Part shown: piece by piece, positions 27,705 to 41,963 of the stretch
How positions within the stretch are numbered: the stretch's first letter is position 1
Layout: each line of letters begins with the position of its first letter
DNA from: Solirubrobacteraceae bacterium
GTDB taxonomy: Bacteria > Actinomycetota > Thermoleophilia > Solirubrobacterales > Solirubrobacteraceae
Assembly: GCA_030690545.1 (NCBI GenBank)
Contig: JAUYGN010000110.1
Coordinates: 1 to 49,315, forward strand
Reading direction: 5' to 3'
DNA length: 49,315 nucleotides
Made by a program: the position numbers and the translations under genes
The notes under the pieces: model-generated
The model's database searches: none
Told to the model about the DNA's origin: nothing
Seen by the model: the letters and a program-made list of their open reading frames with translations, nothing else

Positions 27705-28586
27705 TCAGCCGGCGATGAACGCGACCGCGGTCGCCCACGGATCGCGCACCATGAAGCCGCCCTCGTGGTCCTGCGGATCCAGGCCGGCGGCGGCCACGCG
27801 CTCGCGGACCGCCGCGACCTGCTCGAGCGACGCGAGCACGACCGTCCACTCGCGCAGCCCCGCGGTGCCCGGCGGCCGCGGCTTGACGTCGCGCCCGAGC
27901 CAGACGTTGAAGCCGAGGTGGTGGTGGTAGCCGCCGGCCGAGACGAACGCGGCGCTGCCGACGTTCACCATCACCTCGAATCCGAGCACGTCGCGGTAGA
28001 AGGCGAGAGCCCGCTCGACGTCGCCGACGTGCAGGTGCACGTGGCCCATGACGAGCCCGGCCCCGGCATGCGCGCGTGGCTGCTCGCCGTCGGCCTCGAG
28101 CATCAGGTCGTCGATGTCGAGCGCGATCGTGAACATCTCGACGCGCTCGCCGGCCGTGCGCGGCGCCGGCCACTGCTCGCGCGGGCGGTCGGCGTACAGC
28201 TCGATCCCGTTGTCGTCGGGATCGCGCAGGTAGATCGCCTCGGAGACGCCGTGGTCGGATGCGCCCTCGATCCGCGTGTGCGCCGTCGCCAGGCGCCGGA
28301 CCGCGCGGGCGAGCTCCCGGCGCGTGGGGAACAGCAGCGCGAAGTGGTAGAGGCCCGCGTGCCGGCCGCCGGGCGCGGCGCCCGTCTCCTGCGCGAGGAC
28401 GAGCAGATCCTCGCCGCCCGCGCCCATCGTCGCGACCTCGCCGTCGCGGTCGTGCAGCTGCAGGCCCAGCGCGCGCTCGTAGAACGCGATCGAGCCGTCG
28501 AGCGTCGAGACCGTCAGGTGGACGGGGCCGAGGCGCAGCGAGTCGGGCAGCTGCGGCACGGGGATCGAGTCGGCTGCGGTGCTCAT
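27705..28586 (-). CDS. Two-domain VOC family dioxygenase-like protein
   Basis: A 293-residue protein with two vicinal-oxygen-chelate domains: residues 15-150 (LGPVHLTVSTLDGSIAFYER, LRDPDDNGIELYADRP) and 175-290 (MGHVHLHVGDVERALAFYRD, then GFNVWLG). Metal ligands fit His in GPVHL, His in YHFALLF and Glu in GIELYAD of the first domain. It resembles YfiE/CatE-type catechol-2,3-dioxygenases, but no aromatic-degradation genes are nearby, so the substrate is unknown. ATG 28586 has the normal N-terminus before the first domain. Confidence 0.9.
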   Translation of the reverse strand: MSTAADSIPVPQLPDSLRLGPVHLTVSTLDGSIAFYERALGLQLHDRDGEVATMGAGGEDLLVLAQETGAAPGGRHAGLYHFALLFPTRRELARAVRRLATAHTRIEGASDHGVSEAIYLRDPDDNGIELYADRPREQWPAPRTAGERVEMFTIALDIDDLMLEADGEQPRAHAGAGLVMGHVHLHVGDVERALAFYRDVLGFEVMVNVGSAAFVSAGGYHHHLGFNVWLGRDVKPRPPGTAGLREWTVVLASLEQVAAVRERVAAAGLDPQDHEGGFMVRDPWATAVAFIAG

Positions 28587-28654
28587 CGGCCGATTCTAGG
28601 AGCGCTCTACTGAGCTGAGGCGGGGCCCGGTTCCCGGTACCCTGGAGAGCGCTT

Positions 28655-28727
28655 GGGGCACTAGCTCAACTGGCTGAGCGCCGGTCTCCAAAACCGGAGG
28701 TTGCAGGTTCGAGTCCTGCGTGCCCCG
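28655..28727 (+). tRNA. tRNA-Trp (CCA)
   Basis: 73-nt cloverleaf: acceptor GGGGCAC with GTGCCCC, anticodon stem CCGGT/ACCGG, loop CTCCAAA giving anticodon CCA, T arm GCAGG-TTCGAGT-CCTGC, discriminator G as expected for tryptophan. TACCCT at 28638-28643 may be its -10 box. The next gene's frame opens inside the acceptor 3' strand. Confidence 0.97.
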
Positions 28728-28782
28728 TCGCCGCGGGAAAGGGCGGCTCGTTGGCGTATCCGTCCGCACCGACGACGAACAT

Positions 28783-29526
28783 GTGTTCGTGTCGTACGGC
28801 GAGACGCACCACATCCTCGTTCGCAAGCTCGTCGCGCGCGGGCACTCTGACCGCGAGGTCGCCGCGATCAGCGGCGTCTCGCCGAATACCGTCGGGCGTT
28901 GGCGGCGGTCCTGGCCTGCGATCCGTGTCGAATGGCAGCCAGCGCACGAGCCGTCGTACACGTATCTGCTCGGGCTGTATCTGGGCGACGGGTGCCTCTC
29001 GGTCACTCGCGGCCGTGTCGTGCTGCGCGTCGCGCTCGACCTGCGCTACCCGCGGATCGTCGACGACTGCTGGACCGCGATGGTGCTCTCCCGGCCGAAC
29101 TCTCGCCCGAGCCTCGTGCCGTGTTCGGGGTCCGAGGCTGTGCACGTCCAGGCCTGCGGCAAGCTCTGGCTGCACGCCTTCCCACAGCACGGGCCGGGCC
29201 GCAAGCACGAGCGCAAGATCGCGCTGGAGCCGTGGCAGCAGGAGATCGTCGCGCGACATCCCGGGGAGTTCGTCCGCGGCCTGATCCACTCCGACGGCTG
29301 TCGCACGATCAATCGCTTCCGGACGACGCTGCCGAGCGGTCGGGTGGCCGAGTACGCCTACGCGCGCTACTTCTTCTCGAACCTCTCGGCCGACATTCGC
29401 GGTCTGTTCTGCGCGACGTGCGATGCCCTCGGCGTGCGCTGGACGCTCTCCAACCCGCGCAACGTCTCCGTCTCGCAGCGCAGCAGCGTCGCGACCCTCG
29501 ACGGTCTCGGGTGCGCGAAGGGCTGA
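28783..29526 (+). CDS. HTH + LAGLIDADG-like protein downstream of tRNA-Trp
   Basis: About 247 residues from GTG 28783; the frame is open back to GTG 28720, inside the tRNA-Trp acceptor stem. Domain 1 is a homeodomain-like helix-turn-helix: VRKLVARGHSDREVAAISGV then SPNTVGRWRRSW. Next come two LAGLIDADG-like motifs, YLLGLYLGDGCLS and FVRGLIHSDGCR, each with the acidic residue that binds metal in homing endonucleases. The end has FFSNLSADIRGLFCATCDAL. Similar free-standing genes recur next to tRNAs in actinobacteria (from memory). Homing nuclease, RNA-binding factor or regulator are all possible. The start is uncertain: no clear ribosome binding site. Confidence 0.82.
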   Translation: MFVSYGETHHILVRKLVARGHSDREVAAISGVSPNTVGRWRRSWPAIRVEWQPAHEPSYTYLLGLYLGDGCLSVTRGRVVLRVALDLRYPRIVDDCWTAMVLSRPNSRPSLVPCSGSEAVHVQACGKLWLHAFPQHGPGRKHERKIALEPWQQEIVARHPGEFVRGLIHSDGCRTINRFRTTLPSGRVAEYAYARYFFSNLSADIRGLFCATCDALGVRWTLSNPRNVSVSQRSSVATLDGLGCAKG

Positions 29527-41149: not shown

Positions 41150-41824
41150 TCACCCATCGAGCCGGAAGCCGACTCCCCGCACCGTGTGGATCAGCGGCGG
41201 GTCGCCGAGCTTGCGCCGCAGGTAGGCGACGTAGCGGTCGACGACGTTCGCGCCGGCCTCGCCCTCGCCGCCCCACACCTCCTCGAGCGCCAGCTCGCGC
41301 GAGACGACCGTGCGGGCGTTGCGCAGCAGCAGCTCGAGCAGCTGGGCCTCGCGTCGGGTCAGCGCCAGGTCGATCCCGCCGCGGCGCGCGATCGCACCGT
41401 CGACGTCGAGCACGAGGTCGCCGAACGCGAGTCGGGAGGCGTCGCCGTCGGGCGCGTGGTTGCGGCGCAGCAGCGCCCGGATCCGCGCGGTCAGCTCGTC
41501 GATCTCGAACGGCTTGACGAGGTAGTCGTCAGCGCCGGCATCGAGGCCGGCGACGCGCTCGGACAGCCCGTCGCGCGCCGTCAGCAGCAAGATCGGCACC
41601 GGCAGCCCCTTGGCCCGCAGCCGCCGCGTGACGGCCAGGCCGTCGATTCCCGGCATCGCGACGTCGAGCACGATCACGTCGGGCAGCGATCGCTCGACCT
41701 GCGCGAGCGCCAGGCCGCCGTCGGCGACGGCGCGGACGTCGTAGCCCTCCGCGCTGAGCGAGCGCTCGAGCATCCGGCGGATCGGCGCGTCGTCATCGAC
41801 GAGCAGGACGGCGGCTTCGGGCAT
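41150..41824 (-). CDS. OmpR/PhoB-family response regulator
   Basis: A 224-residue regulator: receiver domain 1-120 with acidic D10-D12, phospho-acceptor Asp54 in VIVLDVAMPG, Thr in LLLTARDG and Lys in YLVKPFEI. The C-terminal winged helix (130-220) has LTRREAQLLELLLRNARTVV and VVDRYVAYLRRKLGD. ATG 41824 was chosen at the first receiver strand; a longer frame to 41926 is unlikely. It heads the operon with the kinase, LolA-like and ABC genes and probably regulates it. Confidence 0.95.
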   Translation of the reverse strand: MPEAAVLLVDDDAPIRRMLERSLSAEGYDVRAVADGGLALAQVERSLPDVIVLDVAMPGIDGLAVTRRLRAKGLPVPILLLTARDGLSERVAGLDAGADDYLVKPFEIDELTARIRALLRRNHAPDGDASRLAFGDLVLDVDGAIARRGGIDLALTRREAQLLELLLRNARTVVSRELALEEVWGGEGEAGANVVDRYVAYLRRKLGDPPLIHTVRGVGFRLDG

Positions 41825-41963
41825 GCCGAGCGAGTCTACGCGCGGGCTACACTGACGTCGCAGCTTCGATTCGCCCTGGGTTTCGTCCCTTCTTCCTTCG
41901 CGCGAACCACTGTTCGGAGGGGGCACGCGCGGGAAGGCCGGTCATGAGCCAAGGGTCGAACAC

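What the first reader, a model, noticed from the sequence alone, without database searches (positions are those of the whole stretch)
28655..29526. HTH/LAGLIDADG-like gene abutting tRNA-Trp
A single reading frame begins inside the acceptor stem of tRNA-Trp and encodes a helix-turn-helix followed by two LAGLIDADG-like motifs with intact acidic residues (YLLGLYLGDG, FVRGLIHSDG) and a Cys pair near the end. It is not inside an intron or intein. It could be a free-standing homing nuclease, or a domesticated factor acting on tRNA or its locus. I recall similar genes next to tRNAs in actinobacteria, but no established function.
Basis: partly seen in the sequence, partly recalled or inferred. Interest (0 to 1): 0.75.

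Follow-up and report, generated by a model that had tools for sequence, protein, structure and literature searches.

The report
tRNA-linked homing endonuclease under SOS control
The gene beside the tryptophan tRNA looks like an intact free-standing DNA-cutting mobile gene of the LAGLIDADG type that is always found stuck to one kind of tRNA gene, appears to move between bacteria together with its own version of that tRNA, and here carries the switch of the DNA-damage response.

Summary
The protein (28789-29526, 245 aa) is an N-terminal HTH plus a monomeric LAGLIDADG endonuclease fold (pLDDT 95; best match I-Tsp061I, Z 16.1). Both acidic residues are kept in 110/110 relatives. Every full-length relative examined abuts a tRNA gene, always Leu or Trp, on either side. 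The tree follows the tRNA species (2 isotype changes; at least 10 in shuffles). The gene is gained, decayed and lost at orthologous sites. In Streptomyces the tRNA allele co-segregates with the nuclease, not with the neighbouring pyk gene; the exchanged block is tRNA promoter, tRNA and nuclease N-terminal half. In the window's genome a LexA/SOS box (28776-28789) abuts the start codon. It is one of only 11 perfect boxes; others precede lexA, dnaE2, uvrA and imuB, and two precede unrelated nucleases (HNH at tRNA-Gln, PD-(D/E)XK at tRNA-Ala). Best reading: a free-standing homing endonuclease whose target is the tRNA gene, carried with a resistant tRNA allele, often induced by DNA damage. Cleavage, target and induction were not tested.

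The parts
28654..28729 (+). tRNA-Trp(CCA) gene: the linked tRNA and the inferred target/resistant allele
   Evidence: ARAGORN; Rfam RF00005 67.2 bits
28776..28789 (+). perfect LexA/SOS (Cheo-type) box CGAACATGTGTTCG, last base = first base of the start codon
   Evidence: one of 11 such sites in the 3.53-Mb genome; others precede lexA, dnaE2, uvrA, imuB; same place in 24 of 41 Thermoleophilia loci, 0.28 expected
28789..29526 (+). LAGLIDADG endonuclease gene, 245 aa, inferred GTG start
28825..28914 (+). helix-turn-helix (HTH_23, residues 13-42)
   Evidence: Pfam PF13384 E 2.1e-6; helices in model
28963..28992 (+). LAGLIDADG motif 1, YLLGLYLGDG, catalytic Asp D67 at 28987-28989
   Evidence: invariant in 110/110 relatives
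29269..29298 (+). LAGLIDADG motif 2, FVRGLIHSDG, catalytic Asp D169 at 29293-29295
   Evidence: invariant in 110/110 relatives
28554..29155 (+). block that differs sharply from close relatives L031/L032 (upstream of tRNA, tRNA, first half of nuclease) inside better conserved flanks
   Evidence: 46-47%, 60-71%, 47-59%, 70-72% against 85-87% in the second half of the gene

Best explanation
The gene is a free-standing LAGLIDADG homing endonuclease that parasitises a tRNA gene. Shown here: (1) a complete, monomeric LAGLIDADG endonuclease fold with an N-terminal HTH and both metal-binding Asp, under purifying selection; (2) strict linkage to tRNA-Leu or tRNA-Trp genes, on either side and in either orientation, with the tree following tRNA identity; (3) gain, decay and loss at orthologous sites, with a clean 0.8-kb indel next to the tRNA; (4) in Streptomyces the tRNA allele travels with the nuclease, as one block of tRNA promoter, tRNA and nuclease N-terminal half, while host genes on both sides do not; (5) in the window's class a LexA box sits on the start codon. 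Inferred: the endonuclease cuts the standard allele of its tRNA gene (double-strand DNA); the element's own tRNA allele is changed enough to be resistant but still works; repair from the element-bearing locus copies tRNA and nuclease together; LexA control limits cutting to times of DNA damage or DNA uptake, when recombination repair is on. The N-terminal half (HTH plus first LAGLIDADG repeat) would be the part whose specificity must match the linked tRNA allele.
For: Fold and family: AF2 model pLDDT 95, pTM 0.90; I-Tsp061I Foldseek E 1.3e-7, Z 16.1 over 175 residues, I-DmoI Z 15.3; LAGLIDADG_3 hit in 27 of 31 family members. Intact: D67/D169 110/110; whole-gene dN/dS 0.13-0.37. Linkage: 110/110 fetched loci; in an unbiased phylum sample (396 genomes, 29 positive) all 30 loci abut a Leu or Trp tRNA; isotype 2 changes on a 100-row tree (shuffles 10-14), anticodon 7 (30-35), side 9. 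Dynamics: 60 Streptomyces loci sampled through pyk: 28 full, 13 fragment, 19 absent; empty-site pair L374/L368 homologous to +39/+46 after the tRNA and again from +66/+883. Co-movement: tRNA type changes 5 times on the nuclease tree, 15 times on the pyk tree; shuffles 14-21 on both; 48 close pairs: tRNA identity against N-half rho 0.69, against C-half 0.08, against flanks about -0.1. Target diversification: in one genus tRNA-Trp is 74% identical on average, tRNA-Gly and tRNA-Pro in the same cluster 96% and 99%. SOS: 24/41 loci with box against 0.28 expected; box shared with lexA, dnaE2, uvrA, imuB. Parallel cases: HNH at tRNA-Gln 30/30, PD-(D/E)XK at a tRNA 29/30.
Against: No cleavage, target site or homing was measured. 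tRNA divergence is not confined to nuclease-bearing genomes: type I tRNA-Leu is as common without the gene (8 of 12) as with it (17 of 25), and the unbiased tRNA-Trp survey shows varied alleles in nuclease-free genomes too, so 'resistant allele' is inferred. The first tRNA-Trp comparison was biased by how the nuclease-free set was picked. The 48 pairs are not independent. No perfect LexA box in 74 Streptomyces loci, so SOS control is not general. The window protein alone scores below the LAGLIDADG_3 gathering cut-off. N-half dS is high too, so the block reflects exchange rather than shown positive selection.
Confidence: 0.72

Rival explanations
1. SOS-induced tRNase with immunity: the protein cleaves the tRNA itself (as anticodon-nuclease bacteriocins do) and the linked tRNA allele is the self-immune version.
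For: Strict link to one tRNA species, allele co-segregation, LexA box, compensated anticodon-stem changes at linked tRNAs.
Against: Fold is that of dsDNA homing endonucleases, and the two parallel families are HNH and PD-(D/E)XK, mostly DNases. With a single-copy linked tRNA the enzyme would have no target in its own cell. Adjacency to the tRNA gene is explained by DNA homing, not needed for an RNase.
Confidence: 0.12
2. Domesticated tRNA factor: a LAGLIDADG protein needed for maturation or regulation of the adjacent unusual tRNA.
For: Matched tRNA and N-terminal half; LAGLIDADG proteins can be RNA maturases.
Against: The same tRNA alleles occur with no nuclease or only a fragment in about half of the Streptomyces loci; catalytic Asp pair invariant; patchy presence (29 of 396 genomes).
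Confidence: 0.05
3. DNA-binding regulator of the tRNA locus or others, like WhiA.
For: HTH plus LAGLIDADG; WhiA scores Z 15.2 against the model.
Against: HTH is N-terminal (C-terminal in WhiA, general knowledge); both acidic residues kept; HTH missing in L003/L034 whose box and nuclease domain remain; presence not conserved.
Confidence: 0.05
4. Passive hitchhiking: tRNA neighbourhoods are integration hot spots and the gene is carried by an ordinary integrative element.
For: tRNA genes are common attachment sites (general knowledge).
Against: No integrase or other cargo: a clean 0.8-kb indel; only Leu/Trp tRNAs, both sides; no match in 50,697 phage and 72,556 plasmid records.
Confidence: 0.03

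Closest known systems
Monomeric LAGLIDADG homing endonucleases of archaea (I-Tsp061I, I-DmoI)
   Same: Same fold (Z 16.1 and 15.3), two motifs with two acidic residues, one chain
   Different: Those are intron-encoded; this one is free-standing in bacterial chromosomes, with an added N-terminal HTH, linked to tRNA genes
SegB of phages T4/T6, a free-standing homing endonuclease of tRNA regions (PMC13096335)
   Same: Free-standing, next to tRNA genes, reported to cut within tRNA genes and to drive exchange of the tRNA region
   Different: SegB is GIY-YIG, in phages, with no preference for tRNA species; here LAGLIDADG, chromosomal, locked to Leu/Trp, moves with a tRNA allele, often under a LexA box
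WhiA (DUF199), domesticated LAGLIDADG regulator
   Same: LAGLIDADG core plus HTH in actinobacteria
   Different: HTH at the other end, catalytic residues lost in WhiA (general knowledge), kept here
Synthetic cleave-and-rescue / home-and-rescue drives (e.g. PMC7951863, PMC7968924)
   Same: Nuclease against an essential gene linked to a recoded copy of that gene
   Different: Those are engineered; here inferred in nature with a tRNA gene, rescue not tested
PD-(D/E)XK endonuclease family PF11645
   Same: Nuclease gene at tRNA genes; in this order also free-standing with a LexA box
   Different: Unrelated fold; mostly tRNA-Ala instead of Leu/Trp

Membership tests
LAGLIDADG homing endonucleases | Two LAGLIDADG motifs each ending in an acidic residue | tested here: met
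   D67 and D169, 110/110 relatives
LAGLIDADG homing endonucleases | Pseudo-symmetric LAGLIDADG fold | tested here: met
   Model pLDDT 95; I-Tsp061I Z 16.1, I-DmoI Z 15.3
LAGLIDADG homing endonucleases | Sequence-profile relationship | tested here: met
   LAGLIDADG_3 matched by 27 of 31 family members, best E 1.8e-6; the window protein alone E 0.012, under the cut-off
LAGLIDADG homing endonucleases | Site-specific double-strand DNA cleavage | not testable with these tools
   Needs protein
LAGLIDADG homing endonucleases | Homing: copying of the gene into the cut allele | tested here: inconclusive
   Indirect: block exchange and gain/loss
SegB-like tRNA-region endonucleases | GIY-YIG catalytic domain | tested here: not met
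   LAGLIDADG fold; so it may work like SegB but is not a member
WhiA / DUF199 | LAGLIDADG followed by C-terminal HTH | tested here: not met
   HTH at residues 13-42, before the LAGLIDADG core
LexA regulon (window's genome) | LexA box shared with lexA and DNA-repair genes at the promoter/start | tested here: met
LexA regulon (window's genome) | Induction by DNA damage | not testable with these tools
   Needs expression data
Cleave-and-rescue element | Linked copy of the target is resistant while other alleles are cut | tested here: inconclusive
   Allele linkage shown; resistance not measured

The most novel reading that the evidence does not exclude
A natural cleave-and-rescue supergene: a DNA-damage-induced endonuclease that destroys the standard allele of an essential single-copy tRNA gene, inherited as one block with a recoded, resistant tRNA. 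The block's two parts (tRNA allele and nuclease N-terminal half) are swapped as a matched pair between species. Unrelated nucleases (LAGLIDADG, HNH, PD-(D/E)XK) have converged on the same plan at different tRNAs, which drives the rapid and odd evolution of those tRNAs, including loss of the long variable arm of tRNA-Leu(CAA) in Streptomyces.
Probability: 0.4. Interest if true: 0.92.

Novelty: new variant of a known kind. Interest (0 to 1): 0.8.

Why it matters
It links three things not joined in the papers found here: free-standing homing endonucleases in bacterial chromosomes, tRNA genes as their homes, and the SOS response as their switch. If right, selfish nucleases are a force behind sudden changes in essential tRNA genes, and nature has a cleave-and-rescue drive that engineers built independently. 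It also offers a large set of natural endonucleases with predicted tRNA-gene targets, and matched tRNA alleles for testing specificity.

Tried and rejected
(a) Start inside the tRNA: rejected from relatives and the box/GTG arrangement. (b) Box as the protein's own HTH operator: rejected, as it precedes lexA, dnaE2, uvrA, imuB and two nuclease genes of other families, and remains in relatives lacking the HTH. (c) 'All nuclease-linked tRNA-Trp genes are recoded and nuclease-free ones are standard': first seen, but that set was chosen by similarity to the window's tRNA; the unbiased pattern search weakened it to a trend and I do not rest on it. (d) Loss of the variable arm as the mark of nuclease presence: no association. 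(e) LexA boxes in Streptomyces: none perfect in 74. (f) Phage or plasmid carriage: no match. (g) Clean empty site in the window's genus: G115 lacks the gene, but its next gene is decayed too, so the junction is not sharp. (h) Literature on type I tRNA-Leu in Streptomyces or tRNA-linked LAGLIDADG genes in actinobacteria: none found in the held library; subscription papers are not held. (j) Direct PDB sequence search with the single protein: no hit.

Full report
1. What is there. The window carries tRNA-Trp(CCA) at 28654-28729, followed by an open frame to 29526. The mechanical ORF start, GTG 28720 inside the tRNA, is not credible: in the closest relatives (L031, L032; 80% and 74% identical) the frame opens only after the tRNA, and across Thermoleophilia the conserved arrangement is a GAAC-N4-GTTC box directly followed by GTG. 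I take the gene as 28789-29526, 245 aa.

2. The protein. HTH_23 at residues 13-42 (E 2.1e-6) is followed by two LAGLIDADG motifs. The model (31-row alignment, pLDDT 95, pTM 0.90) is a monomeric LAGLIDADG endonuclease; best matches are I-Tsp061I (Foldseek E 1.3e-7; Z 16.1, rmsd 2.8, 175 residues) and I-DmoI (Z 15.3). WhiA, a domesticated relative, scores 15.2, so fold alone does not decide function. Both Asp are invariant in 110 relatives, and QHGPGxKHxR, HSDGCR and RYxFxNxSxDI-like blocks are nearly so. Whole-gene dN/dS in close pairs is 0.13-0.37.

3. Linkage to tRNA genes. All 110 loci of the first searches abut a tRNA. Because those came from one query, I repeated it with a family profile in 396 genomes drawn across the phylum: 29 have the gene and all 30 fetched loci abut a tRNA; of 16 further weak or second copies only two short fragments do not. 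The tRNAs are only Trp(CCA) and Leu(CAA, CAG, TAG, TAA). The gene lies on the 3' or the 5' side, in either orientation. On a tree of 100 members isotype changes 2 times (shuffles 10-14) and anticodon 7 times (30-35), while side changes 9 times. The tie is to the tRNA gene itself, not to a flank.

4. Gain, decay, loss. In the window's genus one relative has the gene intact (G072), one has it frameshifted (G030), one lacks it (G115). In Streptomyces the locus is livF - tRNA-Leu(CAA) - nuclease - pyk. Sampling 60 loci through pyk, without reference to the nuclease, gives 28 full, 13 fragmentary and 19 absent. The pair L374 (absent) and L368 (present), with the same tRNA allele, differ by a clean 0.8-kb indel just after the tRNA terminator. 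This is the life cycle expected of a homing gene rather than of a host function.

5. The tRNA allele travels with the nuclease. tRNA-Leu(CAA) at this locus exists in very different forms; 51 of 75 linked genes lack the long variable arm typical of tRNA-Leu. This type changes 5 times on the nuclease tree (shuffles 14-21) but 15 times on the tree of the neighbouring pyk gene, no better than chance (14-21). In 48 close species pairs (37 strains) tRNA identity correlates with identity of the nuclease N-terminal half (rho 0.69, unchanged given the flanks), not with the C-terminal half (0.08) or the flanks. When tRNAs differ, identity falls from 94-97% at -200 to -160 to 33-37% just before the tRNA, 52% in the tRNA and 40-67% in the first half of the gene, then recovers to 74-92%. 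So the exchanged block is tRNA promoter, tRNA and nuclease N-terminal half. A similar dip is seen between the window and L031/L032. The pairs are not independent and no positive selection is shown.

6. Divergence of the linked tRNA. In genus g27 the cluster Trp-Gly-Pro is syntenic in 12 genomes; tRNA-Trp averages 74% pairwise identity, Gly 96% and Pro 99%, with compensated changes in the anticodon stem. This fits escape from, or replacement around, a cut in the tRNA gene. It is not a simple presence mark: nuclease-free genomes also carry varied alleles, as expected if alleles outlive the nuclease. An earlier comparison overstated this through biased sampling and is not used.

7. SOS control. 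The box CGAACATGTGTTCG at 28776-28789 is one of 11 perfect CGAAC-N4-GTTCG sites in the 3.53-Mb genome. Others lie at lexA, imuB, dnaE2, uvrA and a radical SAM gene; at dnaE2 the box abuts the start as here. Among 41 Thermoleophilia loci 24 have a box near the start, 0.28 expected; 7 of 30 in the phylum sample (0.47 expected); 0 of 74 in Streptomyces. The motif agrees with the experimentally defined Streptomyces LexA consensus tCGAAC-N4-GNNCGa (PMC9380542). Expression was not tested.

8. Two parallel families. Two more of the 11 boxes precede an HNH gene right after tRNA-Gln (L120) and a frameshifted PD-(D/E)XK gene (PF11645) ending at tRNA-Ala (L115). In the order, 30 of 30 HNH loci lie at tRNA-Gln and 29 of 30 PF11645 loci near a tRNA, mostly Ala(GGC), most with a box. 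tRNA-Ala(GGC) shows 31 different paired anticodon stems; the common core TGCATGGCATGC is rare next to the nuclease (2 of 35 against 33 of 94, Fisher p 6e-4, not corrected for kinship). Three unrelated nucleases thus share home and switch.

9. Mechanism and rivals. The best account is homing into tRNA genes with co-conversion of a resistant tRNA allele, with SOS timing in this class (0.72). A tRNase with immune tRNA (0.12) explains the allele linkage but not the DNA-endonuclease folds or the need for adjacency. A needed tRNA factor is opposed by frequent absence with the tRNA unchanged. Simple hitchhiking is opposed by the clean indel, the tRNA specificity and the lack of phage or plasmid copies.

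10. Known and new. Free-standing homing endonucleases at tRNA genes are known in phages (SegB, GIY-YIG, reported to cut within tRNA genes; PMC13096335). I found no report of chromosomal LAGLIDADG genes locked to Leu/Trp tRNAs, of LexA control, or of co-inheritance with a tRNA allele, though the library lacks most subscription papers. I rate it a new variant of a known kind, with the cleave-and-rescue reading open.

Noticed in passing
L120 / L168 (G000:C118:6687-7424, - strand): Intact HNH endonuclease gene directly after tRNA-Gln(TTG), LexA box abutting its GTG; 30 of 30 relatives in the order lie at tRNA-Gln.
   Followed up: partly
L115:1501-2003 (G000:C40): Frameshifted PD-(D/E)XK (PF11645) gene with a LexA box at its start, running into tRNA-Ala(GGC); 29 of 30 relatives lie near a tRNA.
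   Followed up: partly
L035-L110, L347-L406 (Streptomyces, livF-pyk locus): Many tRNA-Leu(CAA) genes of 74-77 nt lack the long variable arm that tRNA-Leu normally has; the genus is polymorphic for it.
   Followed up: partly
Thermoleophilia genomes: Single-copy tRNA-Trp exists in at least two very different forms (GGGGCA... and GGGGGACTGGTGTA...) within one order and even within the window's genus.
   Followed up: partly
window 41903-41916: Second perfect CGAAC-N4-GTTCG site in the window, at the start of a response-regulator gene (41150-41926, - strand); may be chance or a LexA target.
   Followed up: no
L118, L121 (G000:C94, C131): dnaE2 and a radical SAM (spore photoproduct lyase-like) gene also have the LexA box abutting the start codon, suggesting this geometry is usual for the organism.
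   Followed up: no
L114:1501 (G000:C31): LexA-type box about 100 bp upstream of the replicative helicase gene dnaB.
   Followed up: no
L003, L034: A relative without the HTH domain still has the box, the nuclease core and the tRNA-Trp link.
   Followed up: partly
PF11645 loci L200-L227: tRNA-Ala(GGC) keeps acceptor and D arms almost constant while its anticodon stem shows 31 paired variants across the order.
   Followed up: partly
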